A DNA stretch of 64,000 nt from Closterium sp. NIES-65 (lineage: Eukaryota; Streptophyta; Zygnematophyceae; Desmidiales; Closteriaceae): positions 1,699,501 to 1,763,500 of the forward strand of contig CANXME010000032.1 of NCBI GenBank assembly GCA_948144175.1, written 5' to 3'. Positions 1,270-64,000 of this stretch are shown one piece after another. The notes under the pieces were generated by a model, which worked only from the letters and a program-made list of their open reading frames with translations, was not told the DNA's origin and searched no databases. Numbering within the stretch: position 1 is the first letter of the stretch; each line of letters begins with the position of its first letter. The translations under genes were made by a program, and so were the position numbers.

Positions 1270-1297
1270 CCCCCCCGCACTGGGATGCCCGAAGTGC

Positions 1298-12989: not shown

Positions 12990-13234
12990 AGCCTTGACGG
13001 GTGACGGGCGGCGGGAAAAAAAAAAAAGGAAACGGCCGCGATCGACGGGGGGAAACGGGCGACGGGCGACTGGCGACGGGGGGGGGGGGGGGGGGGGGGG
13101 GGTCTACAGGCGACGGGACTAAGGTAAGCGCGCTACGGGCGGTCTAGGACGGGGCGCGACTAGGTGGGCCCATGATAGTCGAGTGGATTTTCATAAAGGG
13201 AAAATCTCGCTAGGGTTAACCTAGCTCTATACCA
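12990..13234 (-). promoter_or_regulatory. C1 leader start: primer site, hairpin, tRNA-complementary motif
   Basis: Primer site TGGTATAGAGC (13224-13234, minus) directly follows the 5' LTR. A 6-bp hairpin GCTAGG/CCTAGC (13209-13214 with 13220-13225) and ATGGGCCCACC (minus sense, 13163-13173) come next, then a G25 run (13078-13102 on plus). ATGGGCCCACC is complementary to the plant initiator tRNA-Met anticodon stem and CAU as I recall it. Confidence 0.7.
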
Positions 13235-20439: not shown

Positions 20440-21236
20440 GCAGTAGGCAACGCGACTCAGGTAGGGCGGCTCGGTACAGAAAGGCTGCTCAGTACGGGCG
20501 GCGCGGTTCGGTTCAGGTAGGGCGGCGCGGCTCGGTTCGGGCAGCGCGGCTCGGTTCGGGCTGGGCGGCTCGGTTCGGGCGGCTCGGTTCGGGCGGCCTG
20601 GTTCTGGCGGCGCCGTGGTTGTCGCGTGCGGGGCGCTAAGGGGCGGCGCGTGGGGTCGACGGGGCCGCTAGACGGTGGGCGCGCGGGGTCTACGGGGCTG
20701 ACGGGGCCGCTAAGGGACGGCGCGCGGGGTCGACGGGGCCAGCGGGGCCTCTAGGCGGGGCGCACGTGGGGTCGACAGGGCCAGCGGGGCCTCTAGGCGG
20801 GGCCGACGGGGCCTCTGGGAGGGGCGCGCGCGGGGTCAACGGGCCGACGGGGCCTCTAGGTGGGGCCGACAGGGCCTCTAGGTGGGGCGCGCGGGCCGAC
20901 GGGGCCTTTAGGTGGGGCCGACGGGGCCTCTAGGTGGGTCGCGCAGGCCGACGGGGCCTCTAGGTGGGGCCGATTGGGCCTCTAGGTGGAGCGCGCGGGC
21001 CGACGGGGCCTCTAGGTGGGGCCGACGGGGCCTCTAGGTGGGGCCGACGGGGCCATTAGGTGGGGCGCTCTCGGGGTCGACGGGCCGACGGGGCCTCTAA
21101 AGGGCGGCGCGAGGGTCGCTAAGGGGGAGGCGCTCGAGGGCGCTCCGACGGTGAGGCGCACGAGGGCGCTAGTAGGCAGTCAGCAGTGGTGGGCCCTAAG
21201 AAATCGGTCGTAGCGAAGGACCTGCTCTATATACCA
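20440..21236 (-). promoter_or_regulatory. C2 leader: primer site, GGGCCCACCAC motif, G+C minisatellite
   Basis: Primer site TGGTATATAGAGC (21224-21236, minus) directly follows the LTR. GGTC/GACC (21206-21209 with 21219-21222) could form a weak stem, and GGGCCCACCAC (minus, 21186-21196) follows. The rest is tandem GGCCGACGGGGCCTCTAGGTGG units of about 22 bp (20640-21110) and GGCTCGGTTCGGGC units (20460-20600). No gene is seen. Confidence 0.75.
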
Positions 21237-21405: not shown

Positions 21406-22357
21406 GACGAGTACGAGGCCGGGTAGGGGCGGCAACGGGGCCGCGTAGGGGTGGCTACGAGGCCGCGTAGGGGCGGCGACGGGGCCGCGTAGGGAGGGGA
21501 GCGGCGACGGGGCCGCTAGGGGCGGCGACGGGGCCGCGTAGGGGCGGCGACAGGGCCGCGTAGGGGCGGCAACGGGGCCGCGTAGGGAGGTCAGCGGCGA
21601 CGGGGCCGCTAGGGGCGGCGACGGGGCCGCGTAGGGGCGGCGACGGGGCCGCGTAGGGAGGGGAGCAGCTACGGGGCCGCTAGGGGCGGCGACGGGGCCG
21701 CGTAGGGGCGGCGTAGGGGCGGCAACGGGGCCACATAGGGAGGCTAGCAGCGACGGGGCCGCTAGGGGCGGCGACGGGGCCCCTAGGGGCGGCAACGGGG
21801 CCGCGTAGGGGCGGCTACGGGGCCGTGTAAGGAGGGGAGCGGCTACGGGGCCGCTAGGGGCGGCGACTGGGCCGCGTAGGGGCGGCGACAAGGCCGCTAG
21901 GGGCCGCGTAGGGGCGGCAACGGGGCCGCTAGGGGCGGCGATAGGGCTGCTAGGGGCGGTGACGGGGCCTCGTAGGGGCGGCGATGGGGCCGCTAGGGGC
22001 CGCGAGGGGCCTGGAAGGGCGGCTACGGGGCCGCTGGGGGCGGCGACGGGGCCGCTGAGGGTGGCGCGAGGGGCCGTGAGAGGGGCCTCTAAGAGAGGTC
22101 GACAGAAGGGCAGCCCACAAGGCGCGCCTCGGGCAGGAGCGACTGTCGCTCCGGTCAGGAAAAAAAAAGGTTTCAGTGGTGGGCCCAAGGAAGCGTTCCC
22201 ACTAGGGAACCTGCTCTATACCATGTGAAGAAATGAGGAAATGAGAAATGAATGAACTAGCAAGTAGGTGGGTACAAGTAGGAAAACCTAGAAGTGTTGT
22301 ACCCCATATTGTCTACCCCACTACAGCCTACACAAACTAAAGCATATGAGTTTGACA
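21406..22357 (-). mobile_element. copia element D, 5' end only (LTR and leader)
   Basis: A 134-bp LTR (22224-22357) is preceded on plus by the primer-site complement (22213-22223), a 6-bp hairpin GTTCCC/GGGAAC (22195-22200, 22205-22210), GGTGGGCCC (22178-22186) and a G+C minisatellite of GGGGCCGCGTAGGGGCGGC units (21410-22080). No gag follows, because the element is broken at about 21405. Its LTR abuts the K gag leader directly. Confidence 0.85.
22224..22357 (-). repeat. element D 5' LTR
   Basis: 134 bp, TGTCAAACTC...CTTCACA on the minus strand, with the family core AGGCTGTAGTGGGGTA. The LTR partner is not in the window. Confidence 0.87.
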
Positions 22358-28598: not shown

Positions 28599-29744
28599 TG
28601 CTATCAGAGCACGTCGATCCCCTTGGATCGATCCTGTGGGTGGGTTACCACCTCGCTTCCGCTGCTACTTGTTCCTCCCGCCGTGCGCCCCGAGGCGCGC
28701 GGCGGTTTTCTGCCCGCCGTGCGCCCCGGGGCGCGCGGCGGTTCTCTGCCCGCTGTGCGCCCCGAGGCGCGCGGCGGGCTTCTGCCTCGTCGGTCGCCGC
28801 GTCGCCTTCTGGAGGCGTCGCGACGGGCGACCGGGACCCTCGTCGCGGCCCCGCCCTACAGTCGCGGCCCCGCCCTACGTCGCGGCCCCGCCCCGACCGT
28901 CACGGCCCCGCCCTACGTCGCGGCCCCGCCCCGACCGTCGCGGCCCTGCCCTACGTCGCGGCCCCGCCCTGTGTCGCGGCCCCGCCCCTCAAAGCGGCCC
29001 CGCCCTACTTCGCGGCCCGTGGTGGGTCCCTTTCACCACCCCGCCCCCCCCCCCCCCCCCCCCTCCCCCTGCCATTTCCCGTCGCCCGTCGCGGCTCCTT
29101 CGGGGGCCGGGCGAGCTGTGGGGTGGCGGGTATGGGGGTGCTCGGTGTGCCTTCCTCCCTTTGCTCCTCCTCCTCCTTCGTCTCCCACTGCTGCAGCTGT
29201 CGCTGAGGGGGGTGGTTGTGTGGGAGACTGGGGTTTAGGGTTTAAGGGGGGTGCGTGGGAGTAGAGCTAGCGGTGTAGCAGTGGGTGTGTATCAGGTGGG
29301 TGGGACTGTGTGCGGGAGGATGAGCGGAGGTTGCCAGTTTGTCGTCAGCAGCACCTGTAGTCCGGGGCGCTGTCCCGGTAGCCCAGTGAGCTAGACTTCT
29401 ACGCCAGCCACCTGTGGGTCCGTTGCCCGTCCGCCGCTATTTGAGCCGCGGGGCCTGTTACTCCTGTAGTCCGGGCGCTATCCGGTAGCCGCTGTGCCAG
29501 TCTGCCTCCTGCTGCCCGTGTGTCTGCAGCTTCAGCCGTCGCCTCCTATCTCCTCTCCCCTCACTCTCCCTCCTCCTCCTCACTTGCCCGTTGTGACTAC
29601 CACTAGCTTTGCTTATAATTTGTTAACTCTAAACTATTTCTTCTTGAACTTGTGCTCAGAATGTGTGGTGACATTGTGATCCACCCTGAGCTTGTTTTGC
29701 TTTGCCTGCTCTGCTGATTACACCCCACTTTGGCTATGAGGGTT

Positions 29745-32651: not shown

Positions 32652-32656
32652 TGAAC

Positions 32657-33904: not shown

Positions 33905-35052
33905 GGCAGCTCTCTACTGAGAGGCCCAAGGCCCTGACACTGCCTCGGCGTAAGTGCGAGGAGTCGGTATGTCAAGGGCATCGGGGTCTCTCTCAGGGGT
34001 GAGCAGCATGGCACAGAGATGAGGGGAAGCGGCTGCCAGGAACTCTAGCTCAAACTGCCTGTCCTCTAGGGCGTCACAGCCAAGGGCAGACTCACCCCCG
34101 ACGGCCAGAGGACTGGTAGGAGGAGCAGCCACAAGACCGGTGGTGTAGTCAAGGCGGCGAGTAGAGGCAAGCCTAGTGACTGCGGCAGTAAGAGCGGAGA
34201 CAGAGGACAGAGAGGCATGAGGGTGGGTAACAAGAGAGTCGAGAACACGAGAGAGAACAGGACGGTACGTGCGGTAGTAGTCAGTAACAGGAGTACAGAG
34301 GGAAGTAGTGAGGGCCGACTCAGGGGGAGAAGGAAGCACAGACTGAGACAAATGAGGCGGACTAGGGAGGTAGTACGAAGGTCAGTGAGAGCGACAGGGG
34401 ACGAGGGACAAGCACGAGGAGAGCAACGAGAGGGCCAGGCGTCCAAAGGAGGAGGAGACAATGGAGTCAGAGAACGAGGAAGAACAGCTGGAGAGGAGTT
34501 AGGAGGAGGAAACGTGGGACCGTAGACAGGAGGAGAGGGGGAGGAGGAAGGAGAGGGAGAGAGGAGACTGAGGGTCCGAAGACCAGAGACAGGAGGAGGA
34601 GGTGGCGGCTGCTGCTGCTCCTGCTGCGGCTGTTACCTCTGCTCCTCCAGCGAGGCTGCTCCAGGTGCGACTGCTGCTGCTCCCGGCTGCTGTTGCTGCT
34701 GCTCCTCCTCCTCCAGCCGCTGCAACTCTCGCTCCTCTCTCTCTAACTCCAGCTGCTCCTCACGGGCACGGCGAACACGAGCCTGGTGTCGGGTCGGGTA
34801 GGGGTTGGGGGGGAGGAGTAGTGGCCAGGGCTGTGACAGCCCCAGGACCGGCCTCCACAGCACCAAGCGCACCACCCCCAGAGTCAGCACCAGCAACAGC
34901 AACACGGGCAGGCTCACCAAAAACCACTGGGGGCGCACCCGCACCCCCAGACGTAGCACCCCCAGAGTCAGCTCGACCAGCACCAGCTCTCGGAAGAGTA
35001 GAGTTTCCTGCAGCCACGGGCTCAAATCCAACTCCAGCACCCCAAGAACCAT
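33905..35052 (-). pseudogene. C3 integrase-RT linker
   Basis: Frame 34351-33914 matches the end of the linker in C2 and C4 (TRRLDYTTGLVAAPPTSPLAVGGESALGCDALEDRQFELEFLAAASPHL). A TAG near 33917 breaks the SQW(R/Q)AAMDAEM junction. Upstream (34600-35050) it is Gly/Ala/Pro/Gln-rich with an REEQLELEREERELQRLEEEEQQQQQ stretch (about 34690-34780) that could form a coiled coil. Confidence 0.75.
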
Positions 35053-35490
35053 GACCCGGGTCGCACGCTGAATTTCGTCGACGCGAAATTCGGAGCCTTG
35101 AATTTTGCCGAGCGAATTCCAATGACTGAAATTCCATAGACGAGAATTTCCGCGACAAGAATTCCGCCGACCACCGACTGTAACTCCCGTGCGAATTTCG
35201 TTGACTTCGACACTTCGCTGCCGAGTTTCAAACCGAACGCGACCCGAGATCGATTTCGCCAAACTGTCCCCAATCTGTCCCCAAACTGTCCCCAATCTGT
35301 CCTGACAAGACACATTCGGGACACTTGAATCAAAAGGTCTTCAGTTCGAAACTCGCGTGCACCATAACCAGTGCCTTAGCAGAAACTGTCCTGAATCTGT
35401 CCTGAGACACTTTCAGGACATATTTGAAGGTCACGAGTTCGAATCCCAGCGCAGACATTTTGTTGCTCATGGCAGCATTTCCTTCTAACA
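35053..35490 (-). repeat. element E 3' LTR (truncated)
   Basis: 438 bp, about 95% identical by eye to 39417-39854. It stops at GACCCGGGTC. Confidence 0.88.
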
Positions 35491-35499
35491 CGCCCCCTT

Positions 35500-36600
35500 G
35501 CTGTCAGGCTCACACTGGACCAGCCCGGCTGCTGCACAACATCGGTTGAAGGTTGCCTTGTTGAGCCGCTTCGTTAAGAAGTCCGCGGGCTGCGCCGTCG
35601 TAGGGATGTGCTGCAGCTCTTACTTCTTCGTGCGCACCATGTCCTGTAGCCACATGTGGCAACAGTCCACATGCTTCATACGCCCCTACAGCCCGCCCGC
35701 CTGGGTGAGCTGCACCGCTGACATGTTGTCGACATACAGGGTGGTGGGGCCACCCTTCTTGAGCAGATGAAACTCCCGCAGCAAGAACCTTAGCTTGCGC
35801 CCCTCCTTTCCTGCTTCCACCGTAGCCACAAGCTCGCTCTCGGTGGAGGAAAGTTTGATCGCACCCTGCAGCTTCTTGGCCTGCCATGAAATGGCAGCTC
35901 TGCCAAGCTTGAAGAGGTAGCCTCCCGAGGACGATCGGTTCTCCTTGTCGCCCGCATGATCTGCATCCGCGTACCCCACGATAGTCAAACTCTCAGGACC
36001 TCCCTTGAAAAGCAGCCCCATGTTCGGTGAGGCAGCCCAGTAGGAGAGTGTGCGGAATAGCTCATGCCAATGCGCATCCGTCCTGAGATGTGCACCTGCT
36101 GCAAGGTGGTCGGCCATGGTGCGATCGGCAAACAGCTCAGCACCCTCCATGACAAAGCTGGTAGAGGAGAGAGGGGTGATCGTCTGCTTCTTCGGTGGCG
36201 CCCCCTTGAAGAACCGCTGCTGCACCTTCGCCACGTATGCATCCTGGTGTAGGAGGAGTGTCTTGTTGGGGTGGTCATGCACAATCTGCAGACTAAGATA
36301 GCCTTCCGTAGATGACATGTATTCCACCACGAGGAGACCTTTGTCCACCACCTTGCCTTCAGGTCCGGTTAAGGTTACTCCGAGGTTGATGATGATGCTC
36401 CTCAATCCCCCTTCCTCCTCATCAGCCTCATCCAAGTACTCCACATCATAGTAGATGTCCGTGCCATAGGCACCTCCAGCAAGGAATGCAATGCCGTACA
36501 TGTTGTTGCCATCAACCGCATCCAAGGCCATCATGGTGGATGTGGGAAGCCGAACAAGTGGCATACCCTTGTTGGACCTGCTAGAATGACATGGGGGTGG
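35500..36600 (-). pseudogene. element E RT thumb and RNase H
   Basis: Frame 36564-35686 (292 aa) starts inside the RT after the catalytic region: TDIYYDVEYLDEADEEE, SLQIVHDHPNKTLLLHQDAYVAKVQQRFF, then RNase H VGYADADHAGDKENRSSSGGYLFKLG, ISWQAKKLQGAIKLSSTESELVA, LYVDNMSAVQLTQAGG. It ends near 35500 before the PPT. No YVDD motif and no palm domain are present, so there is no polymerase. Confidence 0.87.
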
Positions 36601-36609
36601 GGGAGTGGG

Positions 36610-38376
36610 CTAGAGGGGCGGAACCGTGGGTATGGGGTCCTTCCCATGAGTTGCCGCCGATTTCAGGTCCGCTGCCTCTCCTTCCTTGTCTTCATTAGCT
36701 GCACGACGTTCATCCGCAAAGGGGCCAACCTCTGGTCCCAGAGGTGCCAAGCTAGCTGCTAAGGATGGGCAGAGAGCTGGCGGTGCCATGGTTGCATTGC
36801 TGCCCAAAGGGTCAACCGAACGATCAAACGATTGTTTGCCCCCTTGCATGGACGGCACTGGGATTATGATGACGGTACGTGACGGCGGCTGATTCTGCTC
36901 AGGGCCATGGACCATCCCAAGAACCTCCCCCTCTCGCACGTCAGGCAGCGGAAGCGTTTGACGAGTGAGTTTGGCTTCTTGGGAGGAGGCGCTCAACGTG
37001 TCCTCCCCTCCTTTCTCTACGTCCATGCCTAGCATGACACTGTCTGTGGCTGTCTACTGCACCGCACCAGCATGGTCATTCTCAATGTGAGTGTGTCGCA
37101 GGTTGAGCATCGCCTCGGTCCCCACCGCATATGTTGTGAGGCTGGCCGCTTCGTCATTCTCTTCCGGCGCGCTTGACACCACCTCAGCAAATATCTTAGG
37201 CATACCATTGCCTGCCACCTCAGCCGCTGTGCCATTGCATGCCGCTGTAGCTGCTGTATTGTTGCATATTGCTGCAACCACCGTGCCTTTGCATGCCGCC
37301 ACAGCCGCCCTACCGTTGCATGCCGCCGCAGCCGCCCTGCCGTTGCATGCCGCTGCAGCCGCCGTGCCGTTGCTCGCCGCTCCACCCGCCAAATTGGTGC
37401 ATGCCACTACAGCCGCCGTGCCGTTGCATGCTGCTGCAGCCCCTGTGCCGTTGCTCGCCACTCCACCCGCCATATTGGTGCATGCCGCTTCAGCCGCCGT
37501 GCCGTTGCATGCCGCTGCAGCCGTTGCACCGTTCCTTGCTGGCCCCGGTTTCAGGTCAAGGTAGTGAAGGCGATGGCGGTATCGTGCCGTTGCAGCCACT
37601 TGACCTCCTGATGCGATGATGCGAGTGACACCTTCCTCGGTTTGCAGCTTTGCTCCCTTATCCAAGAGCTGCCCAGGGGAGACCAAGTTGGCCTTCATTC
37701 CTGGCACAAACAGGACATCATGTAGGGTCACATGCAAGCCGTTAGTGCCCTCCAGTAAAACCTCACCAGCACCGGCAACTTTCTGCATAGAACCATCAAA
37801 CCCTTTGACCGATTTCGTTGCAGATGGGTCACGGATCACCGTGAACCACTCCTTGCGGTCGGTCATGTGTTGGGAGCATCCTGAGTCAAGAAACCACAAG
37901 TCCTTGTCGTCGGCCAGCAACTTAGCAGCCGAACATGCGACAGTGAGCGACACGCCCTTCCCGTCTCCTTCAGCTACGTTCGCGGCTGCCGCAGACGTTG
38001 TATCTTTCTTCTTGTTGGGGCACTTGGCAGCCATGTGCCCCTCCTCATTGCAGTTGTAGCAGCGCCCCTTCAAGGGGGCTCGCTTCTTCTCCCACTTGCC
38101 GTCCTTCTTCTTGTCCGTCTGCTCCTGTCCCCCTTTTCCTTCCTTCCCGTTGACCCCCGTTGTAGCCACGATGGTGTTGACAGCGCCCGCAAAAGCAGAT
38201 GCATCGCTGGTGATCTGCTTGTAACTCTGTTCGATGGATAGAGTCTGCTCCTCGATCAACACCTCGCTGCACACGCGTTCCACCATCATGTCAGGGCTGG
38301 AAATATCGAGCTTGCGGCGAAGAAATCCGTACTCCAGTGGTAGGCCCTTTAGCACGTGGGCGGCAAACGTGGCCAT
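36610..38376 (-). pseudogene. element E gag C-terminus, protease and Ala/Asn-rich repeat domain
   Basis: Frame 38376-37054 (440 aa) has gag (LKGLPLEYGFLRRKLDISSP), a canonical zinc knuckle CYNCNEEGHMAAKC (about 38040-38085), protease WFLDSGCSQHMTDRKEWF (about 37850-37905) and LVSPGQLLDKGAKL. Where the integrase zinc region should start it enters about 110 residues of AACNGTAA/ACTNLAGGAASNG repeats (37220-37560). A TAG at 37054-37056 follows VQ. Frame 37035-36610 continues with a Pro/Ala-rich stretch leading into the RNase H part. Confidence 0.87.
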
Positions 38377-38396
38377 GTGGACCTCCTGTCCAATGG

Positions 38397-39113
38397 TCAG
38401 CAGCTCCGCTCGGATGGTGCGGCCCTATTGCAGTAGGATTCCGCCGTTTCATCATCTCCCTTCCTGAGTTGGGCTAACTGGGTGTGAAGTAGGGAAGCAT
38501 GGAGGGCATCACAAACTTGATAAGTAGACAAGATATATGCCCATGCTAGCTGCTCGGCTTTCTCTTGCTGAGAGAAACCAGAGATGGACATTCGGATGGG
38601 TGGAGAAACACATCGGTTCAGCACCATGAATGCAAGCATTTGGCCCTTTGTGTACTCCTCTCGTTGCAAGAGGTTGTTTGGGGCCGGGCTTGGTGCTGTC
38701 CCGTTGCAAAACTGCCACAAATCAGCACACTGGAGCTGAGGTCGGATGGCGCTGATCCACGCGGTAAGGTCGTGCCTTCCCTCCAGCAGCGGCGTCACAA
38801 AGATGTGTTCAACTCCAAACTTGAATTGACCGTAGCTCGCCCCGATCATTCCCGTGTCAATGGTCGGTGCAACAACTCCTCCGCCAATGCCCAGGGCATT
38901 TGGAGCTTTGTGCACAGCTCCTCCTACACCAGTTCCTCCTTACTGGCCACTCGCAGGTGCTTGCTCCGCCGCGCGCTCCCGAACCATGCGTAGTAGACGA
39001 CCGTCCACAATAAGGTCGACCTCATCATCACGCAAGTTAGGGTGGTGCTCACGAACGGACGCCTCCAGCTCCTGACGGGAATTCAGGCCCTCAGCACTCG
39101 TTAACCACTCCAT
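38397..39113 (-). pseudogene. element E gag N-terminal part
   Basis: Starts at the minus ATG 39111-39113 (MEWLTSAEGLNSRQELEASV). A TAA near 38943 breaks it. Frame 38915-38397 carries SYGQFKFGVEHIFVTPLLEGRHDLTAWISAIRPQL and YQVCDALHASLLHTQLAQLRKGDDETAESYCN, matching the X gag domain in order and spacing. Confidence 0.87.
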
Positions 39114-39218
39114 GCGCGGTCAAAACGAGCGTCGGCCACACCAACGTAGGAACGAAGTGACGGGAGGACGGAACAAGCTGCTAGTTGGATCGACGCAGAT
39201 AACGCAGCTCTGATACCA

Positions 39219-39854
39219 CGTCAAACTTCACTACTATAGCAGCTTGATAGAGCTTGAAAGCACAATTCCAACGAACCAAAGATTGCATGAAATGGTCCAC
39301 TATAGCCAGAGTTACACACAAACATAGCAATGATAATGACTTGGTTAATTTATGGTTTGTGCTCTCTGGTTTTATACTAGGACGCAATACAAAATAAAAA
39401 CACACAAGAAAGTGTCGACCCGGGTCGCACGTTGAATTTCGTCGACGCAAAATTTGGTGCCTTGAATTTCGCCGAGCGGATTCCATTGACTAGAATTCCG
39501 TAGACGAGAATTTCCGCGACAAAAATTCCGTCGACCACCGACTGTAACTCCCGTGCGAATTTCGTTTACTTCGACACTTCGCTGCCGAGTTTCAAGCCGA
39601 ACGCGACCCGAGATCGATTTCGCCAAACTGTCCCCAATCTGTCCCCAAACTGTCCTCAATCTGTCCTGACAAGACACTTTCTTGACACCTGAATCAAAAG
39701 GTCTTTAGTTCGAAACTCGCGTGCACCATAACCAGCGCCTTAGCAGAAACTGTCCTGAATCTGTCCTGAGACACTTTCAGGACAGATTTGAAGGTCACGA
39801 GTTCGAATCCCAGCGCAGACATTTTGTTGCTCATGGCAGCATTTCCTTCTAACA
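39219..39854 (-). repeat. element E 5' LTR
   Basis: 636 bp on minus, TGTTAGAAGG...GTTTGACG, with a TATAAAA box (39370-39376). It contains a perfect 12-bp inverted repeat (39758-39769, 39777-39788), CTGTCCCCAA repeats (39625-39660) and B-box-like GAGTTCGAATC (39799-39809, plus). The terminal CG is read as a mutated CA. Confidence 0.8.
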
Positions 39855-41103
39855 GAGCGGGGGTCAGGAAGAGGGGGGGAGGAGGAACCGGGAGACCTCG
39901 ACAGGGGTACCTGACGTAGTAGGGGACGAACTCCTCGAAACGGACGTAACGGGAGCCGAAGAACCGGTGAGAGGGAGGGTAGTAAAAGGTGAAGTCAGGG
40001 GACTCCTTAGGGAAACCGAAGAAGACACAGGGAACGGCGCGAGGCGAGAGCTTGTCCGCGGAGGTGTCGCGAACAAGAGCCAAGCAACCCCAGACATGAA
40101 ACCGCGACGCAACACCAGGGGACCCAGTCCAAAGACCGGTCGGTAAAACCTCTGGCTGAGAGACACGCGGCCAGAGGTTCAGCTGGTGAGCAGCGTACCG
40201 AACCGCATAGGGCCACAGAAAATGGGGGGCACGGGCGTGAGTCAATGAGGTGCGGGCGATCTCCATGACCAAGCCTATGCGGCGCTCAGCAACCCCATTC
40301 TGCTGTGAGGACTCTGGAAGCGTCCAGGACTGACGAATGCCCTGCTCGCGACAGAATCCAGCAAGAAAGCCGGAGCAAAACTCACCCCCGTGGTTGGAGT
40401 GAAGACAGCTGACACAACAACCACGAGTGTCCTCTGTGGTAAGCAACCACCTGATCAGCATAGAAGTCACCTATGACTTCTTTGCCAGGGGGAACACTGT
40501 GGTGTAGCAGGTGTAGTCGTCAACGACCACCAGAAAGAAACGCTCACGCTCAGGGCCAAGGCGAGGGGCGGGGCCCCAGACGTCCAAGTGGATTGTCTCA
40601 AACAGCTGGGTGGCCGGACGAAGGAAGGAGGATTGAGGGGTGGCGCGCAGCCGACCCTCAACATAGGGACCGCACGGTGGTGCAAGGGACGCCGGGAGCG
40701 ACGGCAAGACAGACAGGAGGCCTTAGACAAGACGCGGACGAGTCACAGCGCACAGACGAGTAAGGGACGGGTGCCCCATCCGGTGGTGCCACAGAACGGT
40801 GGGGTGGGCAAGCGACCGGCAGGAGCAAGACGCAGCAATTGGACCAGACGCGGGAACACGACCAGACACAGCTACCTAGGGGGACGCGGTAACCTGGTGA
40901 GACGCAAGGACCAGACGGGGGGAAGGGACAGGGGCCGGGGGCAGTAGCGGCCGCTGCGGCTGCTGCTGCTGCCGCCCACCGGGGCCAGTGTGAAGAGTGT
41001 AGAGACCGGAGCCCGGCTCAGCAGTAAAGGTGGCAAGAGGCTGGAAAGAGGCCCCGTCAACACACACTGCGGTCTCGCTAGAGGGCTCAAACCACACACC
41101 CAC
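39855..41103 (-). pseudogene. C3 integrase
   Basis: Zinc region TVLWHHRMGHPSLTRL and a CGPYV site (the second Cys of CxxC is Val here), core IHLDVWGPAPRL, VVDDYTCYTTVFPL, LHSNHGGEF (second catalytic Asp is Asn), SQQNGVAERRIGLVMEIARTS, then DTSADKLSPRAVPCVFFGF and YVRFEEFVPYYVRYP. Stops occur at 40876-40878 and near 40495. Frame 40470-39694 (258 aa) carries the C-terminal half up to the junction with E. Confidence 0.88.
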
Positions 41104-42860
41104 GTGCTAACTCACGAGAGGCCTCATGCCCACCAAGTTCCTCGAGAACGAGGGGACGTGGAACCCGGTCAGAGACCTAGAGTTGAAGAGGTGTGAGTGT
41201 CGTGCGGTCGCGGAAGAAACAGTGCGAAGCTCCAGAGTCTAGAGTGAAAGACAGCGAAGCGTCCCCCGGAGCAGCTCCTGGACTAGTGTCTACACAAGTA
41301 CCTACACTAGCAACACATCTCAACAAGACTAGCACCTAAGCTAACAACACTCGAGTAAACTGAGTCAGAAGCACTAGAGTCAACAACAGCATACATAGCA
41401 TAAGGAGCTCCTAAGAGATCAACTAATTGAGAAGCTGACATGCCCCACAAAGCAGAGCCGTACGTCTGAACTAGAGGAAACCGGTCAAGGGCAGGGCCAC
41501 CAACGGCGAAGGCCAAACGGACCGTGTCAGTAAGCTAAGCAAAGCACTGACCAGGAGGGTGGGCACGCCGACAAGGCTGGCCCCGGCGAGCACCCGTCAG
41601 AACCTGATAGGTGCACGGAGGGTGAACAACACCTTGCTGGAGCTGACGCTGTCTTGACCCCGAAGCCTGCTGCTGCCACTGCTGCTGCTGAGGCTGCGGT
41701 GAGGGGAGAGGCTGCTTCTGCTGCAGCTGCTGCTGTCGCTGAGTCAAGTACCACGCCGCTGCACCACCCACTGCAGTCGGCAGACTAGGGGGCGACTGAC
41801 AAACCCGGGCAAGGCCACCACCAGCTCCAGCAGGGGAGTCACCAGACCCTGCACTCCCGCCACCACCAGTCGCCACGCCACCCCCACCACCTCCGCCGCC
41901 GCCGCCGCCTGCACCCTGACCGCCCCTCTTGCCACCCCTACCCCGAGACAGCAAATAAGTTGTAACAGCAGTTGCGGTCACGTCAGTAGCAGCAGTGGCG
42001 AGAGAGGCAGCAAAGGTGGGCAGCTAAGGGACAGTGCACCCGTAGAACAGTGGAGGGGGCACAGTACCAGAGGCAGAGACTATGGAGCGAAGGTTGCTCT
42101 CGACGTCCTTGGGTGCTGACTCAAGGACCTCAATAGTGAGCGCGCTAGGGTGCTTCAGAAGAAGCGTGTCACGAACCGAGGCAAGGCGGTCAGGGGGGCT
42201 AGTAGCGATGAAATAAATAGTGATCGCCATGGGGGGAGGAAGCGGTGCAAGCTGTGCCTCAGTGCAAGCAGCGCAGTAGCTAGAATCGAGCAAGCGGAGG
42301 TGAGCAATCAAGTTAGCAGAGCGCTCAAATGAGGCGAGGTCAGGAAACAGTTACGGAAGGAACAGGCGACCTAGAGAGACAATGGTGGGAGTAGCGTAGC
42401 GGGCCTTGATCGCAGTTAGGAACTCACTAGCCGTGCGAACCTAAGTGAAGTGGGTCTCCTCAGACTCAGGGAGGAGGCTGCTGAGGGCAATGCAGGCCGC
42501 AGCGTCACGCGAGGTCCGCGCTGTGAGGTCAGCACGCTGGCGGGCATATCGGTCTCTGTCGGCAGAGCTAGCGTCAGCGCCTAAGGGTACAAGATCAAGG
42601 GGCCTAGGGATGTCACCAGAAGCGTGCTCCCACAAGGACTCGCTTGCTTGCACCTGACTCGCTAGGAGACTCTGCGCACGCTGAAGCCAGACGGAGAACT
42701 CGAGGGGCCTACCCTTGGCGTCAAAGCGAAGGACCCTGAGGGTCGCCACAGTGGAAGCTGAAGCTACGAGGCCGGCAAGGCGCAGCGGTAGGCGCGGCAG
42801 GAAACTCAGCGGCAGTCGTGGGCTTGGCGACAAGCATGGCAAGGAGACAGGCGGGCGGGC
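41104..42860 (-). pseudogene. C3 gag, variant zinc motif and protease
   Basis: Frame 42842-42441 (LRFDAKGRPLEFSVWLQRAQSLLASQ) is the gag N-terminus, and 42311-42024 and 41981-41535 continue it. TAG codons at 42441-42443, 42024-42026 and 41535-41537 separate these frames, each where Gln would fit. A Gly-rich stretch precedes CTYQVLTGARRGQPC with RRAH and PPGQC (C-X13-C-X3-H-X4-C). The protease LDSGASHCFFRDRTTLTPL is near 41210-41250, with its middle deleted before HVPSFSRNLVG-like sequence; TAG at 41107-41109. Confidence 0.87.
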
Positions 42861-42899
42861 AGGTAGGACTGGCGTGTGGGCGGGCGGGTGGAGAGGCGC

Positions 42900-43709
42900 G
42901 CAAGCGTGCGCAAAAGGCAGGCGCGGCGGACGGCTAGGGCGGGGCTCGTGGCGGGCCTAACTAGCAGGCTCGGCGGGCGGCTAGGTCGGGGTCCGCGGCT
43001 AGCCGAACGGGCAGGTACGGCGGGCGGCTAGGGCGGGCCCGCGACGGGCGCGAAAGGCAGGCGCTGCGGACGGCTAAGGCAGGCCCGCGACGGGCGCAAA
43101 AGGCAGGGCCCTCGACGGACCTAACGAACAAGCGCGGCGGCAGCCTAACGAGCAGGCGCGGTGGCGGCCTAACGGGAAGACACGGCGGCGCGAAGATAGG
43201 GCCCGCGGTGGGCATAATGGGCAGGCGCGGCGGCGCAAAGGCAGGGCCCGTGGCGGGCCTAACGGGCAGGCGCGGAGGCAGCCTGGCGGGCAGGCGCAGC
43301 GACGACATAACGGGCAGGCGCGGCGGCGCGAAGACAGGGCCCGCGGTGGGAAGATTGGGCAGGCGCGGCGGCGCAAAGTCAGGGCCCGCAGCGGGCCTAA
43401 CGGGCAAGCGCGGCGGCAGCCTAACGGGCAGGCGTGGCGGCGACCTAACGGGCAGGCGCGGCGGCGCGAAGACAGTGCCCGCGGTGGGCAGAACGGGCAG
43501 GCGCGGCGGCGCGAAGGCACGGCCCGCGGAGGGCCTAACGGGGCAGGCAAGGCGGCTTAACGGGCACGCGAGACCGGTCGCGAACGAGTGGGACACGGAA
43601 CGGGAGAGTGTCGACAGCTACGGCAGGGCTACGCGACAGAACGGGTGAGGCGCGTCAGGCTCGGGCGAGAGGAACGGGATCCTACATGATCCTAACCTAG
43701 GTGATACAA
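42900..43709 (-). promoter_or_regulatory. C3 leader: degenerate primer site, hairpin, G+C minisatellite
   Basis: The site directly inside the LTR reads TTGTATCACCTAG on minus, a decayed primer site. GGATC/GATCC (43677-43681, 43688-43692) forms a 5-bp hairpin; GGGCCC is absent. 42960-43560 is tandem GGGCAGGCGCGGCGGCGCGAAG-type DNA of about 60-70 bp units. The long frames there have no recognisable domain. Confidence 0.7.
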
Positions 43710-43818
43710 TGTCAAGAATGAAAGTGTTGGTTCATTGATGTGGGTTGGGGTACACATAGCAAACCCTAACATTTGTACCCCCTAAGACAAGCCTCACTAC
43801 AGGCTACAACATTTGACA
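43710..43818 (-). repeat. C3 5' LTR
   Basis: 109 bp; two differences from the 3' copy. Confidence 0.9.
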
Positions 43819-44536
43819 CTTTCTATCTACCCAAACATCCGTTGCTCCTAGATGTTTGGAGATCTCTTTCACCCTCTCTAAATCCTCCTCTTTTTTAGCA
43901 TAGACAGCTCCCCAGCCTTGCTGCTGGTTATTACTACGATAAAGGAATTACGTGTTTCTTACGTACGCCTTTGTGTTGTTGGTTTGTGTAGACCATATTT
44001 CTAGCTGCTCTAAGCTTTGCTTTACCTCGTTACTACCTTTATATAACCATAGCGAAAAATGCCACGCTGTAAGGAATAATCTCAGATTCCTTACTGGGTC
44101 ACACTGTACGCATACAACCCCTGTTTTCGGAAAACCAGGCTCGGTCCGTCGACCTCGCCTTCCGAACCATCACCGCGTCGCCTTCGGGTTTTCCAACCCC
44201 GAACCTGCACCCAACCATCTCGCGACCCCGCTAGCATTGCCATATTAGTCCTAGGCCTCGTTGTGAGACGTTGGAATCACTTCCGCGTTATTGAATATTG
44301 CGCACTCTTTCTTTCACAACTCATAACACTTGGTATCAGAGCCTACTTTCCTAGGTTACCCTCGCGTTTCCGAGGTAGTTTGTATAAGGGGAGCGATAGA
44401 CTTGGTGGGCTATAAAGCGGTTGGCCTGTGAAATAGATACGATAATTTCACTCCGACTACGATAGCGTTTACGCCTTCACCAAAGTCGTAAAAATCGCTA
44501 GTCACCCCCTGCCCGTTCGACGAAGCCTGAGGCACA
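43819..44536 (+). repeat. gypsy G 5' LTR (3' part), primer site and leader
   Basis: The LTR ends ...CATAACA at 44328. After CT the primer site TGGTATCAGAGCC (44331-44343) is complementary to the initiator tRNA-Met 3' end. The LTR start is left of C3 and not resolved. The leader to 44536 has no recognised domain. Confidence 0.72.
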
Positions 44537-44901: not shown

Positions 44902-44947
44902 TGGTATAGAGCAGGTTCCCTCGTGGGAACTTCCTAGGGCCCACCAC

Positions 44948-45840
44948 TGAACATCCATTTTTTTTTCCTGCCCTGAGATCGAGTCGCTCCTGACCGAGGC
45001 GCGCCCTGTGAACTGCCCTCCCCTTAGCGACCCGTCACGCCGCCCTCAGCGGCCCTCCCCCTCTCTCACGGCCCCTCGCGACCCCGTCGCCGCCCTCCTA
45101 GCGGCCGTCGCGCCGCCCTATCGCGGCTCCGTCGCCGCCCTATCGCGGCCCCGTCGCCGCCCTCTTGCGGTCCCCTCGCTGCCCTATCGCGGCCCCGTCG
45201 CCGCCCTCTTGCGGCCCCGTCGCCGCCCTATCGCGGCTCTGTCGCCGCCCTATCGCGGCCCCGTCGCCGCCCTCTCGAGGCCCCGTCTCCGCCCTATCGC
45301 GGACCCGTCGCCTCCTTCTCGCGGCCCCGTCACCGTCGTTCGCGGCCCCGTCGCCGCCCGTACCAGCCCTGCAGCCGCCCCTCGCGGCCTCGTCGCCGCC
45401 CTCTCACCGCCGCGTCGCCGCTCTCTAGCGGCCCTAATCGCCGCCCTCTTGCGGCCTCGTCGCCGCCCCTCCGCGGCCCTGCTACCGCTCCTAAACGGCC
45501 TCGTCGCCGCCCCTAGGCGGCCCCGACGCCGCCTCATACGCGGCCTCGACGCCGCCTCTACCGAGCCGCCCAGCAGCAGAGCCGCCGAGCCGCCCAGCAG
45601 CAGAGCCGCCGAGCCGCCCAGCAGCTGAGCCGCCGCGCCGCCCAGCAGCCGAGCCGCCTAGCCGCCGAGCCGCCCAGCAGCCGACCCGCCGAGCCGCCAG
45701 ACAGCCGAGCCGCCCAGCAGCCAAGCCGCCGAGCCGCCCAGCACCCGACCGCCGAGCCGCCCAGCAGCCGAGCCGCCGAACCGCCCAGCAGCCGAGCCGC
45801 CGAGCCGCCCAGCAGCCGAGCCGCTGAGCCGCTACCAGTC
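44948..45840 (+). repeat. F leader G+C minisatellite
   Basis: Two tandem blocks: GCGGCCCCGTCGCCGCCCTA-type units (45070-45480) and CCGAGCCGCCCAGCAG units (45560-45830). Frames across it have no domain. Confidence 0.85.
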
Positions 45841-45907
45841 CTACCGACGCGCCCCGGCCCTACTTACTCGTACTGGTCAGCCCACTCCTTGCTAGACCTC
45901 TGCAGTC

Positions 45908-51770: not shown

Positions 51771-51899
51771 TGTCAGAATGTTATCTTATGCTCTAGCCTG
51801 TAGTGGGGTGCTCTATAGCGAGTACAACCCTTCTAGGGTTTCCTATTTGTATCCCCATTATTGCTAGTGCAGCCCTCTTCTTTCTTTTAATTTTTCTCA
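51771..51899 (+). repeat. H 5' LTR
   Basis: 129 bp, TGTCAGAATGTT...TTTCTCA. Confidence 0.93.
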
Positions 51900-52524
51900 T
51901 GGTATCAGAGCGAGTCGATCCCCTTGGATCGATCCTGTGGGTGGGCTCACCACCTCGTTGCTTCCGCTACAACTGCTACTGCTACTCTCTGTGCCGCACG
52001 CCCCGTGGCGTGCGGCAGTTTTTTCTTCCCGCCGTGCGCCCCGAGGCGCGCGGCGACTTTCTGCCCGCCGAGCGCCCCGAGGCGCGCGGCGGTTTTCTGC
52101 CCGCCGTGCGCCCCGAGGCGCGCGACGGGTTTCTGCCCCGTCACTCGGCGCGTCGCCCCCGGGAGGCGCTCCGACGGGCGACGGGGACCCGCGCGTCGCA
52201 CCCCGTCGCCCTACCTACGGCCCCGGCCCCGTCGCCCTACCTATGCCCCGGCCCCGTCGCCCTGCCTGCGACCCCGGCCCCGTCGCCCCACCTGCGACCC
52301 CGGTCCCGTCGCCATACCTGCGGCCCCAGCCCTAGCCCCGTCGCCCTACCTGCGCCCCGGCCCCGGCCCCGTCGCCCTACCTGCGACCCCGGCCCCGTCG
52401 CCCCACCTCCGACCCCGGCCCCGTCGCCCTACCTGCGCCCTGGCCCCACCGCCCTACCTGCGTACCGGCCCCGTCGCCCTACCTACGACCCGGCCCCGTC
52501 GCCCTACCTACGGCACGTGAACCG

Positions 52525-55694: not shown

Positions 55695-57206
55695 TCAAGA
55701 GGAGAGCAAGTGAGGCAAGACAGGCACAAGACCCAGCTGGGTGCAGAGGCGCTGATGGTCACACGGCGCGAGTGCCTTGGTGAACACATCAGCAGTGTTG
55801 GCCTCAGAGGCCACGTACGCAAGCCGCAACTGTCCACGCTGCTGCAGCTCACGAACAAGGAAGTAGCGAAGAGCAATGTGCTTCGTTCTGTGCTCCAGAC
55901 GCTGCTCTCGACACAAGGCCAGCATGGCCTTGTTGTCTACGTACAGCACTGGAGGAGAACGAGGCGGCTCTCCAAGGTCAGTCAGCAGGTAGGTGAGCCA
56001 GCGAAGCTCCTGTGCATCCATGGCCCCAGCGTAGATCTCAGCCTCACAAGTGGAGCTGAGAACCGAAGACGAGCGAGTAGCCCGCCACGAGACAGAGCCG
56101 GAACCAAGACTGAAGGTGTAACCCTGTGACGACCGCTGCGTAGCCTGGTCGTCAGCCCAAGAAGCGTCCGCGTGCCCTGTAAGGACCACTGGACTCCGCC
56201 CTCCAAGCACTAGCCCCATGCCCGACGTACTGCACAGGTAGCGCAACACCCTCTTCGCTGCAGCCATGTGCTCTGGTCGGTGTCTCCCAGGAGCAACATA
56301 GCGTGCAAGAATGCTCAGAGGGTATGCAAGGTCAGGTCGTGTGCAGGTCATCAGGTACATGAGGCAGCCAACAAGCTCTGGGTACGGGCCACTCGGCTCT
56401 ACGGACTCATCCGAAGGCAGAGCTGAGAGCGAGTGGCGAGTAGACAGAGGAGTGGCCTGAGGCGAGGAGTACGTGAAGCCGAAGCGCTGAAGGACCTGCT
56501 GCACCATGTGTGACTGAGTCAAGGTAATGGTGCGGCGTGCTCTGTCCCGAGTGATCTGCAAGCCAAGGTAGCTGCGCAGTTCACCCAGGTCTGTGCACGT
56601 GTGTCTCTTCAGCAGCTCGGACTTCACGTAGGCGAGTCCAGCAGTGTCCGCTGTGGCAAAGACCAAGTCGTCGACGTACACGAGGATGTAGAACGGCGGC
56701 AGAGAAGTGTCGGTGCGCAGAAACAGCGACGGGTCAGCAGTAGGAGCGAACCCAAGAGCCGCAAGCGTAGTCCTCAGTGTGTCGTGCCACTCACGCGGTG
56801 CCTGGCGGAGACCGTAGACTGGCCGTCGGAGGCTCCACTGGGTGCCAGGAGGGAAAGTCCTTGTGAAGCCAGGTGGACGGCGCAGCCAGATCTCCTCGTG
56901 CAGGCTACCCTGCAGGAACGCAGTGCTGAAGTCGAGAGAGTGAAGCTCGTAGTCGCGCTGAGCGGCTATGTGCAGCAGCACCCGAAGAGTGGTCATCTTC
57001 GGGGTGGGAGAGAAGGTCTGAAAGTAGTCAACTCCCTGCCGCTGACTGAAGCCACGAGCAACGTACCGCGCGTTGAAGACAGGTGGAGAGCCCGGCGGCC
57101 GCTTCACCCTGAAGATCCACATGCCACTGAGGATGTTCGCCCCAGGAGGGGGAACTGCGTCAACGTAGGTGCCTGTGGACTTCCAGGAAGCCATCTCTGC
57201 ATCCAT
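55695..57206 (-). CDS. C4 reverse transcriptase-RNase H (intact 503-aa frame)
   Basis: Uninterrupted from MDAEMASWKSTGTYVDAVPPPGANIL to PVLPHLLSS. RT domain: FRVKRPPGSPPVFNARYVARGFSQRQGVDYF, KMTTLRVLLHIAAQ, SLDFSTAFLQGSLHEEIW, YGLRQAPREWHD, catalytic YVDDLVFATAD (residues ~175-185), RHTCTDLGELRSYLGL. RNase H: LTGHADASWADDQATQRSSQGYTF (first Asp), CEAEIYAGAMDAQELRW (Glu), YVDNKAMLALC (Asp), THREHR-like HRTKHIALRYFLVREL. The first residue is a Met inside the polyprotein; a TAG at 57219-57221 just upstream separates it from the linker. It could supply RT in trans only if expressed as part of a corrected polyprotein, which is unproven. Confidence 0.93.
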   Translation of the reverse strand: MDAEMASWKSTGTYVDAVPPPGANILSGMWIFRVKRPPGSPPVFNARYVARGFSQRQGVDYFQTFSPTPKMTTLRVLLHIAAQRDYELHSLDFSTAFLQGSLHEEIWLRRPPGFTRTFPPGTQWSLRRPVYGLRQAPREWHDTLRTTLAALGFAPTADPSLFLRTDTSLPPFYILVYVDDLVFATADTAGLAYVKSELLKRHTCTDLGELRSYLGLQITRDRARRTITLTQSHMVQQVLQRFGFTYSSPQATPLSTRHSLSALPSDESVEPSGPYPELVGCLMYLMTCTRPDLAYPLSILARYVAPGRHRPEHMAAAKRVLRYLCSTSGMGLVLGGRSPVVLTGHADASWADDQATQRSSQGYTFSLGSGSVSWRATRSSSVLSSTCEAEIYAGAMDAQELRWLTYLLTDLGEPPRSPPVLYVDNKAMLALCREQRLEHRTKHIALRYFLVRELQQRGQLRLAYVASEANTADVFTKALAPCDHQRLCTQLGLVPVLPHLLSS

Positions 57207-61689: not shown

Positions 61690-62540
61690 CAGGGCAGTGC
61701 AGGGAGGGCTCGGGCGGCTCGGGCGGCCCGGGCGGCTCGGGCGGCTCGGGCGGCTCGGGCGGCTCGGGCGGCTCGGGCGGCTCGGGCGGCTCGGGCGGCT
61801 CGATTGCTGGGCGGCTCGGGCGACTCGGCGGCTCGGGCGGCTCGGGCGGCTCGGGCGGCACTGCAGCTGGGGCGGCTCGGCTGCTGGGGCGGCTCGGCGG
61901 CTGGGGCGGCTCGGCTGCTGGGGCGGCTCTGCTGCTGGGGCGGCTCGGCCGGGAGATGCAGGGGCGGGGCCGTCAGGTGAAGCGGCGGGCCGCTGGGTGC
62001 AGCGGCGGGCCGTTTGGTGAAGCGGCGGGCCGCTGGGTGCAGCGGCGGGCCGTAGGGTGCAGCGGCGGGCCGGCAGGCGCAGCGGCGGGGCCGTCAGGTG
62101 AGGCGGCGGGCCGTAGGGTGCAGCGGCGGGCCGTAGGTTGCAGCGGCGGGCCGGCAGGTGCAGCGGCGGGGCCGTCAGGTGCAGCGGCGGGCCGGCAGGG
62201 CCGCGTCAGAGCAGGCGGCGGGGCCGCGACAGTGGAGGCGGCGGGGCCGCGTCAAGCAGGCGGCGGGGCCGCGTCAGTGGAGGCGGCGGGGCCGCGTCAA
62301 GCAGGCGGCAGGGCCGCGACGTAGCGGGCGGCAGGGCCGCGTTAGAGCCGGCGGCGGGGCCGCGTCAGTGGAGGCGGCGGGGCCGCGTCAAGCAGGCGGC
62401 GGGGCCGCGATCAGGAGGGGCAGCGGGGCCGCGAGGGAAATGGCGACCCGAGGGGTCGCTAAAAAAAAAAATGCGCGCCTCGGGGCGCGCTTCGGTGGGC
62501 CCTAAAAAAACGGTCCTTAGGAAGGACCCGCTCTATACCA
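61690..62540 (-). promoter_or_regulatory. C4 leader: primer site, hairpins, GGGCCCACC, G+C minisatellite
   Basis: Primer site TGGTATAGAGC (62530-62540, minus). Hairpin GGTCCTT-AGG-AAGGACC (62512-62528). GGTGGGCCC on plus (62494-62502). GCGCGCC-TCGG-GGCGCGC hairpin (62473-62490) next to an A11 run (62461-62471). Then minisatellites GGCGGGGCCGCGTCA (62090-62440) and GGCGGCTCG 9-mers (61700-61960). Confidence 0.8.
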
Positions 62541-62987: not shown

Positions 62988-64000
62988 TGTCAGAACATAT
63001 AGCTTGTGCTTATTGTGTAGGCTATAGTGGGGTATCCCATAGGGGTTACAACCCAATTAGGGTTAGTACTTGTACCCACTTCATTCATATTTCATTCATT
63101 CGCGTTCACTTTTTCACATGGAATCAGAGCAGGTCCCCTCCTAGGGACTGTTCCCAGGGCCCACCGAAGCGCGCCCCGAGGCGCGCGTTCCTTTTTTTTT
63201 AGCGACCCTCCGTGTCGCCCCTAGCGGCCCGGTACGCCGCCCTTACCTACGCGGCCCCGCCGCCCTTACCTGCGCGGCCCCGCCGCCCTTACCTACGCGG
63301 CCCCGCCGCCCTTACGTCGCAGCCCCGCCGCCCTCACGTCGCGGCCCCGCCGCCCTCACGTCGCGGCCCCGCCGCCCTCACGTCGCGGCCCAGCCGCCCT
63401 CACGTCGCAGCCCCGCCGCCCTCACGTCGCGGACTCGCCGCCCTCACCTTTGCGGCCCCGCCGCCCTCATCTTCGCGGCCCCGCCGCCCTTACCTACGCG
63501 GCCCCGCCGCCCTTACCTACGCGGCCCCGCCACCCTTACCTACGCGGCCCCGCCGCCCTTACATCGCGGCCCCGCCGCCCTCACGTAGCGGCCCCGCCGC
63601 CTCACCTTCCCGGCCCCGCCGCCCTCACGTAGCGGCCCCGCCGCCTCACCTCCGCGGCCCCGCCGCCCTCACCTACACGGCCCCGCCGCCCTCACCTTCG
63701 CGGCCTCGCCGCCCGTGCCTACGCGGCCCCGCCGCCTTCTCCTACGCGGCCCCGCCGCCCTCACATCACGGCCCCGCCGCCCACACCTTCGCGGCCTCGC
63801 CGGTCTCCCCTCCTGCCGAGCCGCCCGAGCAGCCGCCCGCCACGCCGCCCGGTACCGGAGCAGCCGAGCCGCCGAGCCATAGTTCAGCCGAGCCGCCCAG
63901 CAGCAGCCGCCGAGCCGCCGGGCCGCCGAGCCGCAGTACAGCCGAGGCGCCCAGCAGCCGCCGCCGAGCCGCCGGACCGCCGAGCCGCAGTACCGCCGAG
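62988..64000 (+). mobile_element. copia element I, 5' end (LTR and leader), runs off the window
   Basis: LTR 62988-63118 (131 bp, TGTCAGAACATAT...TTCACA), primer site TGGAATCAGAGC (63119-63130), hairpin GTCCC/GGGAC (63133-63137, 63144-63148), GGGCCCACC (63157-63165), hairpin GCGCGCC-CCGA-GGCGCGC (63169-63186), T10 run, then GCGGCCCCGCCGCCCTCACGT repeats of about 22 bp to 63790 and CCGAGCCGCC repeats to the end. Gag is expected beyond the window. Confidence 0.88.
63190..64000 (+). repeat. element I leader G+C minisatellite
   Basis: About 27 units of 21-23 bp (GCCCCGCCGCCCT(C/T)AC(C/G)T...), then a shorter CCGAGCCGC repeat. No gene seen. Confidence 0.88.

What the first reader, a model, noticed from the sequence alone, without database searches (positions are those of the whole stretch)
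44902..44947. Second primer-tRNA complementarity: GGGCCCACC downstream of the primer site matches the initiator tRNA-Met anticodon arm
Seven copia-family 5' ends have GGGCCCACC (or a G-U compatible form) about 35-65 nt after the start of the primer site: F 44937-44947, I 63157-63165, C4 62494-62502, C2 21186-21196, D 22178-22186, C1 13163-13173, H 51943-51953. Plant initiator tRNA-Met, as I recall it, contains GUGGUGGGCCCAU in its anticodon stem and loop, so the motif pairs with it over 9-12 nt; C1 covers the CAU anticodon (ATGGGCCCACC). The first site pairs with the tRNA 3' end. A two-part primer tRNA interaction is known for yeast Ty1 (D and T arms) and for HIV-1 (anticodon loop), but I do not know of one using the anticodon stem in plant copia elements.
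Basis: partly seen in the sequence, partly recalled or inferred. Interest (0 to 1): 0.9.

Follow-up and report, generated by a model that had tools for sequence, protein, structure and literature searches.

The report
Retrotransposons gripping their primer tRNA twice
In a green alga related to land plants, many copia-type jumping genes carry, just after the usual primer site, a second stretch that matches the middle of the same start tRNA, and some carry an antisense copy of much of that tRNA, which suggests how such elements hold, and perhaps once copied, their primer.

Summary
The window is from a Closterium-like alga. Host initiator tRNA genes contain GTGGTGGGCCCAT. All seven sites are present, plus a weaker eighth. 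Genome-wide, 11,942 of 13,798 TGGTATAGAGC primer sites have exact GGGCCCACC 22-34 nt downstream, reversed control 0. In 18 diverged leaders the nine motif columns are 94-100% conserved; adjoining columns are 67% and 44%. A hairpin with paired changes lies between the sites. Cofolding with the host tRNA gives both helices in 54 of 60 leaders, 12 of 60 after shuffling. Other leaders also match the D arm (1,046 places); with that word left out, 20 of 26 distinct sequences examined still match antisense tRNA (p<=0.01). Best reading: an extended, Ty1-like primer contact centred on the anticodon stem, perhaps a remnant of a captured antisense tRNA. It is not a half-tRNA primer site: the LTR abuts the first site. 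Against: a substitution-bias test was negative, copies are related, one genome was seen, and nothing was probed. New variant of a known kind.

The parts
44902..44912 (+). F: first primer site TGGTATAGAGC (one base short of the tRNA 3' end complement)
   Evidence: genome count
44914..44931 (+). F: hairpin between the two sites
   Evidence: predicted in the complex
44937..44947 (+). F: second site GGGCCCACCAC, complement of the 5' strand of the initiator tRNA anticodon stem
63119..63130 (+). I: first primer site TGGAATCAGAGC
63132..63149 (+). I: hairpin
63157..63165 (+). I: second site GGGCCCACC
62530..62540 (-). C4: first primer site, directly next to the 5' LTR 62541-62667
62512..62528 (-). 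C4: hairpin
62494..62502 (-). C4: second site GGGCCCACC
21224..21236 (-). C2: first primer site TGGTATATAGAGC, next to the 5' LTR 21237-21359
21206..21222 (-). C2: hairpin (short stem)
21186..21196 (-). C2: second site GGGCCCACCAC
22213..22223 (-). D: first primer site TGGTATAGAGC
22195..22210 (-). D: hairpin
22176..22187 (-). D: second site TGGGCCCACCAC
13224..13234 (-). C1: first primer site, next to the 5' LTR 13235-13374
13163..13173 (-). C1: second site ATGGGCCCACC, reaching the CAU anticodon complement
13157..13181 (-). C1: inverted repeat CGACTA/TAGTCG around the second site (seen by eye; not in the predicted minimum-energy fold)
   Evidence: against:
51900..51911 (+). H: first primer site TGGTATCAGAGC, next to the 5' LTR 51771-51899
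51916..51931 (+). H: hairpin
51929..51942 (+). [quoted passage not shown]
51943..51953 (+). H: second site GGGCTCACCAC (one G-U)
51960..51968 (+). H: match to antisense D arm (GCTTCCGCT)
28599..28610 (+). eighth leader: first primer site TGCTATCAGAGC
28615..28630 (+). eighth leader: hairpin
28628..28641 (+). eighth leader: match to antisense T loop and anticodon 3' strand
28642..28651 (+). eighth leader: weak second site GGGTTACCAC
28654..28665 (+). eighth leader: 12-nt match to antisense D arm (CGCTTCCGCTGC)

Best explanation
GGGCCCACC is a second contact site for the primer. [quoted passage not shown] Between them the element RNA folds into a hairpin and the tRNA can keep its T arm, giving a four-way junction that would fix the tRNA for the start of minus-strand synthesis and perhaps for packaging. 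In TGGTATAGAGC copies the first site lacks one base and is the weaker helix, so the second site may supply much of the binding. In other leader types the match extends to the T arm and D arm in tRNA order, so the leader looks like a more or less decayed antisense initiator tRNA. Shown: sequences, conservation, host tRNA, predicted pairing. Inferred: pairing in the cell, role in priming or packaging, antisense origin.
For: Host tRNA has the complement. 11,942 of 13,798 TGGTATAGAGC sites have the exact motif, control 0. Motif columns 94-100% conserved in 18 diverged leaders, adjoining columns 67% and 44%. Both helices predicted in 54 of 60 leaders, 12 of 60 after shuffling, 11 of 39 motif-less leaders. 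Hairpin stems of 6 bp or more in 59 of 77 leaders, 18.5% of shuffles, 8 of 39 motif-less leaders, with paired changes. Second-site helix -21.4 to -26.9 kcal/mol against -12.9 for the bulged and -19.9 for the perfect first site. D-arm word at 1,046 places, reversed control 0; with it left out 20 of 26 distinct sequences match antisense tRNA at p<=0.01. H and the 28599 leader z 8.5 and 8.4.
Against: C-to-T changes (pairing kept as G-U) are no commoner per site than G-to-A changes (42.5 against 43.5 copies). Single window leaders D, C1 and I do not reach p 0.02 in the alignment test, and 20 of 60 TGGTATAGAGC leaders do not. The motif is not specially unpaired in the free leader (0.49 against 0.45). 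Of 88 TGGTATCAGAGC leaders 74 lack the motif, so it is not needed by all initiator-primed elements. For D-arm leaders the number of predicted pairs overlaps with shuffles (38-57 against up to 45). Copies are related; one genome; no probing.
Confidence: 0.78

Rival explanations
1. Half-tRNA primer site: the motif is the true primer site for an initiator tRNA cut in the anticodon loop, as in Drosophila copia and Ty5, and the upstream site is a relic.
For: The same tRNA stretch is used; half-tRNA-Met sites are reported for Osser, Bryco and part of Gymco-II (PMC6317226, passages). The first site is damaged in 13,798 places, and no tRNA with a matching acceptor end was found.
Against: In C1, C2, C4 and H the LTR ends at the first site, not at the motif; the primer in use sets that edge. 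The motif lies 24-31 nt past the first site in 77 of 81 leaders, and TGGTATAGAGC is itself shared by thousands of copies.
Confidence: 0.06
2. Dimer-initiation loop: GGGCCC is a palindrome and lets two element RNAs kiss, as retroviral dimer sites downstream of the primer site do.
For: GGGCCC is self-complementary and lies downstream of the primer site; in C1 an inverted repeat flanks it.
Against: The three bases ACC after the palindrome are as invariant as the palindrome (51 of 52 each). GGGCCC lies wholly in a hairpin loop of the predicted fold in 0 of 76 leaders. It does not explain the D-arm and T-arm words.
Confidence: 0.06
3. DNA site for TCP-type transcription factors (GGNCCCAC, recalled) that acts as a downstream promoter element.
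For: The motif contains GGNCCCAC (motif name and form recalled, no call).
Against: Position 3, free in that motif, is G in 52 of 52 distinct contexts and position 9 is C in 51 of 52. The opposite orientation occurs in the leader of 3 of 81, and a TCP-like site in the last 160 nt of the LTR of 1 of 81; 10 of 81 have a further GGNCCCAC later in the leader. No link to the D-arm and T-arm words.
Confidence: 0.04
4. Inherited relic: a captured antisense tRNA with no present function, conserved only because the copies are recent.
For: Antisense matches in several leader types; no substitution bias among inserted copies.
Against: Nine columns stay 94-100% conserved while 10-column blocks of the rest of the leader average 38-86%; a relic should decay evenly. 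The hairpin shows paired changes.
Confidence: 0.06

Closest known systems
Yeast Ty1 extended primer site (PMC4974528, passages seen)
   Same: Initiator tRNA-Met; a 3'-end site followed downstream by further complementarity to the tRNA; stated to help tRNA packaging and the start of reverse transcription.
   Different: Ty1 uses the T and D arms; here the commonest second site is the anticodon stem, after a hairpin with paired changes, and some leaders match most of the tRNA.
Yeast Ty3 split primer site (PMC5371799, passages seen)
   Same: More than one tRNA arm is paired; its primer site is reported not to be preserved by copying the tRNA, as may hold for the deleted site here.
   Different: Ty3 parts lie at opposite ends of the RNA; here all lie within about 75 nt.
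Half-tRNA-primed copia elements: Drosophila copia, Ty5, Osser, Bryco (PMC5371799, PMC6317226, passages seen)
   Same: Complementarity to the anticodon region of initiator tRNA.
   Different: There it is the primer site itself; here it lies downstream of a 3'-end site that abuts the LTR.
HIV-1 A-rich loop and primer activation signal (PMC3185550, passages seen)
   Same: A second, proposed contact with the anticodon loop or T arm of the primer.
   Different: The HIV-1 A-rich loop is upstream of the primer site and pairs with the loop; here the site is downstream and pairs mainly with the stem.

Membership tests
Ty1/copia (Pseudoviridae) LTR retrotransposons | copia-type RT (RVT_2) with integrase ahead of it | tested here: met
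   C4: RVT_2 in 55695-57206 (-), rve in 57219-59675 (-), that is upstream on that strand
Ty1/copia (Pseudoviridae) LTR retrotransposons | LTRs with a tRNA primer site next to the 5' LTR | tested here: met
   LTR pairs of C1, C2, C4, H and adjoining sites
Whole-tRNA (3'-end) primed elements | site next to the LTR complementary to the tRNA 3' end | tested here: met
   TGGTATCAGAGC matches the genomic initiator tRNA plus CCA; TGGTATAGAGC matches with a one-base bulge
Half-tRNA primed elements | anticodon-complementary site directly next to the LTR | tested here: not met
   motif lies 24-31 nt after the first site in 77 of 81 leaders
Ty1-type extended primer site | extra complementarity to other arms of the same tRNA downstream of the 3'-end site | tested here: met
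   anticodon stem in most TGGTATAGAGC leaders; D arm in 1,046 TGGTATCAGAGC places, T arm in part of those examined
Ty1-type extended primer site | extra pairing needed for tRNA packaging or start of reverse transcription | not testable with these tools
   needs biochemistry
HIV-1 type A-loop contact | anticodon-complementary site upstream of the primer site | tested here: not met
   downstream in all eight window leaders
Retroviral dimer-initiation loop | palindrome shown in a hairpin loop | tested here: not met
   0 of 76 predicted folds; prediction only

The most novel reading that the evidence does not exclude
The leaders began as an antisense copy of the whole initiator tRNA, made when the reverse transcriptase read through the primer tRNA beyond its usual stop during plus-strand synthesis. 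Families then kept different parts of it (anticodon stem alone; T arm plus D arm; nearly all), which gave multi-point primer contact at once and offers a path by which copia elements could switch between whole-tRNA and half-tRNA primers.
Probability: 0.5. Interest if true: 0.87.

Novelty: new variant of a known kind. Interest (0 to 1): 0.75.

Why it matters
How copia elements choose a primer tRNA and change between whole and half tRNA is open; PMC10886601 says that the detailed mechanism of primer-type change is unknown (passage). Here one genome holds thousands of copies with both kinds of contact, and a graded series of leaders from a nine-base contact to an antisense match over most of the tRNA. 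That makes the origin of extended primer contacts testable by comparison, in a streptophyte alga.

Tried and rejected
Rejected: half-tRNA primer (LTR edge); dimer loop; TCP site; start-codon context (ATG within 3 nt of the motif in 1 of 81); chance. A tRNA with a matching deleted acceptor end was sought for TGGTATAGAGC: CGAAACCTSGCTCTATA has 0 matches.

Led nowhere or negative: viral contigs with the two-site pattern gave 0 and 1 match; the one match, L001, looks like chance (about 3 expected by my arithmetic). No RT relatives in viral contigs. Substitution bias negative. The count of TGGTATCAGAGCN{10,40}GGGCCCACC did not complete. No scrambled-word control that keeps the primer site was run for the D-arm count; by arithmetic about 0.5 would be expected in bases of equal frequency (17,425 x 31 / 4^10). 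In the listings I saw no report of a second, anticodon-stem site in a plant or algal copia element; the library is partial, and Friant 1996 (PMC145666) is not held.

redid the test on 29 places, 26 distinct sequences, with more shuffles and with a shuffled control for the pair count that one search lacked.

Full report
WHAT IS THERE. The window is 64 kb with 59.7% G+C and many copia-type domains and short direct repeats that behave as LTRs. An RT of the window (503 aa) finds proteins whose names, in the 120 rows listed, all read Closterium sp. as I went through them (only the best 120 of 8,000 are listed). The window lies in an unnamed 874-Mb assembly. Eight leaders carry a primer site for initiator tRNA-Met, a hairpin, and GGGCCCACC or a weaker form. 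Where both LTRs were found (C1, C2, C4, H) the 5' LTR ends at the first base of the primer site. RT identity is 87% between C4 and C2 and 74% between C4 and C1.

THE TRNA. TGGGCCCATAACCCA occurs 33 times in the genome (reversed control 6); 12 places were fetched and 10 of the 12 are tRNA-Met(CAT) genes by ARAGORN. They read GTGGTGGGCCCATAACCCAC in the anticodon arm and differ among themselves in the T stem and ends. GGGCCCACC is complementary to nt 26-34 in standard numbering (my count).

IS IT MORE THAN CHANCE. TGGTATAGAGC occurs 13,798 times (reversed control 214) and TGGTATCAGAGC 17,425 times (control 8). Without regard to the motif I fetched 60 of the first 100 listed TGGTATAGAGC places and 88 of the first 100 listed TGGTATCAGAGC places (loci); the 12 left out were mostly near neighbours of places taken. 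Of the 60, 55 have exact GGGCCCACC and 5 one mismatch; none has it in two later windows or in the LTR end. Of the 88, 14 have it with at most one mismatch and 74 do not. Comparing the lists by eye, 89 of the first 100 TGGTATAGAGC places have the exact motif 22-34 nt downstream. The other 11 were all fetched: five have one mismatch (L024, L025, L041, L043, L061), one has ATGGGCCCACC nearer the primer site (L162), four have damaged forms (L163-L166; L163 with a change that breaks an inner pair), and one has none (L167). Genome-wide the exact pair is found 11,942 times, reversed control 0.

CONSERVATION. From 77 leaders that carry the motif with at most one mismatch or lie in the window, 18 with under 80% identity over 310 nt were kept. 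The motif columns are 0.94-1.00 conserved; the column just before is 0.67 (the one before that 0.94) and the column just after 0.44. In 81 motif-bearing leaders of 156 there are seven one-base departures: three at the first position, four inside, and those four keep a G-U pair.

A TEST THAT FAILED. If pairing were guarded in each copy, C to T (G-U kept) should outnumber G to A (pair lost). The genome has 170 copies with a change over four C sites and 87 over two G sites, 42.5 and 43.5 per site. There is no bias. Most such changes are probably decay after insertion; conservation between lineages is the better evidence, and it rests on related elements.

STRUCTURE. The stretch after the first site forms a stem of 6 bp or more in 59 of 77 leaders, against 18.5% of shuffled ones and 8 of 39 motif-less leaders, with paired changes between subfamilies. 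RNAcofold with the genomic tRNA gives both helices in 54 of 60 TGGTATAGAGC leaders and 8 of 8 window leaders, in 12 of 60 shuffled and 11 of 39 motif-less leaders. In F and L022 the prediction is a four-way junction: first-site helix, element hairpin, second-site helix, tRNA T arm; other leaders shown in that call pair differently between the two sites. The spacing between the sites is 24-31 nt in 77 of 81 leaders; the tRNA has 30 nt between its two paired parts (my count). The deleted first site is predicted at -12.9 kcal/mol, the perfect one at -19.9, the second site at -21.4 to -26.9. In the free leader the motif is not specially open (0.49 against 0.45).

BEYOND THE ANTICODON. Against antisense tRNA the leaders H and 28599 score z 8.5 and 8.4; 40 of 60 TGGTATAGAGC leaders reach p 0.02, 4 of 39 motif-less ones do, and the single leaders D, C1 and I of the window do not. 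The D-arm word CTTCCGCTGC follows TGGTATCAGAGC within 22-52 nt at 1,046 places, reversed control 0; in the unbiased sample 2 of 88 have it (L009, L154). I examined 29 such places: eight loci (two of them L009 and L154 again), 20 picked for variety from its list, and the window leader 28599. They hold 26 distinct sequences. With the D-arm word left out, 20 of 26 match antisense tRNA between primer site and D arm at p<=0.01 and 23 of 26 at p<=0.05. The predicted number of intermolecular pairs is 38-57 (median 48), against a median of 31.5 and a maximum of 45 after shuffling. In the six alignments printed the order is that of the tRNA. Since the series begins with TGG, the complement of the CCA that is added after transcription, the source would be mature tRNA rather than a tRNA gene; this is an inference. 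A few leaders lack the anticodon part and keep T-arm and D-arm words (for example L184), as Ty1 does.

KNOWN OR NEW. Ty1 pairs with the T and D arms of the same tRNA downstream of its primer site (PMC4974528, passages). Drosophila copia, Ty5, Osser and Bryco prime from a tRNA cut in the anticodon region (PMC5371799, PMC6317226, passages). HIV-1 has a proposed anticodon-loop contact upstream of its site (PMC3185550, passages). I saw no report of a 3'-end site followed by an anticodon-stem site in a plant or algal element, nor of a near-whole antisense tRNA leader, in the listings; the library is partial. I file it as a new variant of extended primer contact.

HOW IT PROBABLY WORKS. The element RNA would capture initiator tRNA through the strong second site, the hairpin would bring the first site to the tRNA 3' end, and reverse transcriptase would start there. 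The sequence features are shown; the order of events, the packaging role and the antisense origin are inferred. That reverse transcriptase usually stops at a modified base in the tRNA T loop is recalled, from no call.

Noticed in passing
1125-1477 (-), and sampled loci such as L002, L105, L107, L120, L137, L142, L157: A tRNA-like element: 145-nt direct repeats (93%), TGGTATCAGAGC followed by a T-arm-like stretch (GGTTCRAATCC). It resembles the tRNA-bearing TRIMs called Helenus (PMC10886601, passages) or a SINE, and accounts for part of the TGGTATCAGAGC count.
   Followed up: no
44902-44912 and 13,798 genome places: The primer site TGGTATAGAGC lacks one base of the tRNA complement, yet is kept in thousands of copies, and no tRNA with a matching end was found. 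The site may not be restored from the tRNA in each round.
   Followed up: partly
30988-43819 (-): An element with 98% identical 110-nt repeats holds another pair of 438-nt repeats (35053-35490, 39417-39854, 95%), which looks like a nested insertion; its own leader shows no second site.
   Followed up: no
21408-22070, 45054-45864, 63235-63934, 20727-21116: Leaders or nearby stretches made of tandem repeats with units of about 8, 11, 22 or 30 nt.
   Followed up: no
L082-L092 (except L087) and most of L122-L156: An abundant other family (LTR end ACAAGC, TGGTATCAGAGC) has GATCCTCG, a T-arm antisense word, 24 nt into the leader, but its score against antisense tRNA is not significant (L082 z 1.7, p 0.07).
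   Followed up: partly
L176, L180, L183 and others: In many D-arm leaders the antisense anticodon loop is missing, so that GTGGG joins CCCAC; this palindrome could pair with either strand of the tRNA anticodon stem.
   Followed up: no
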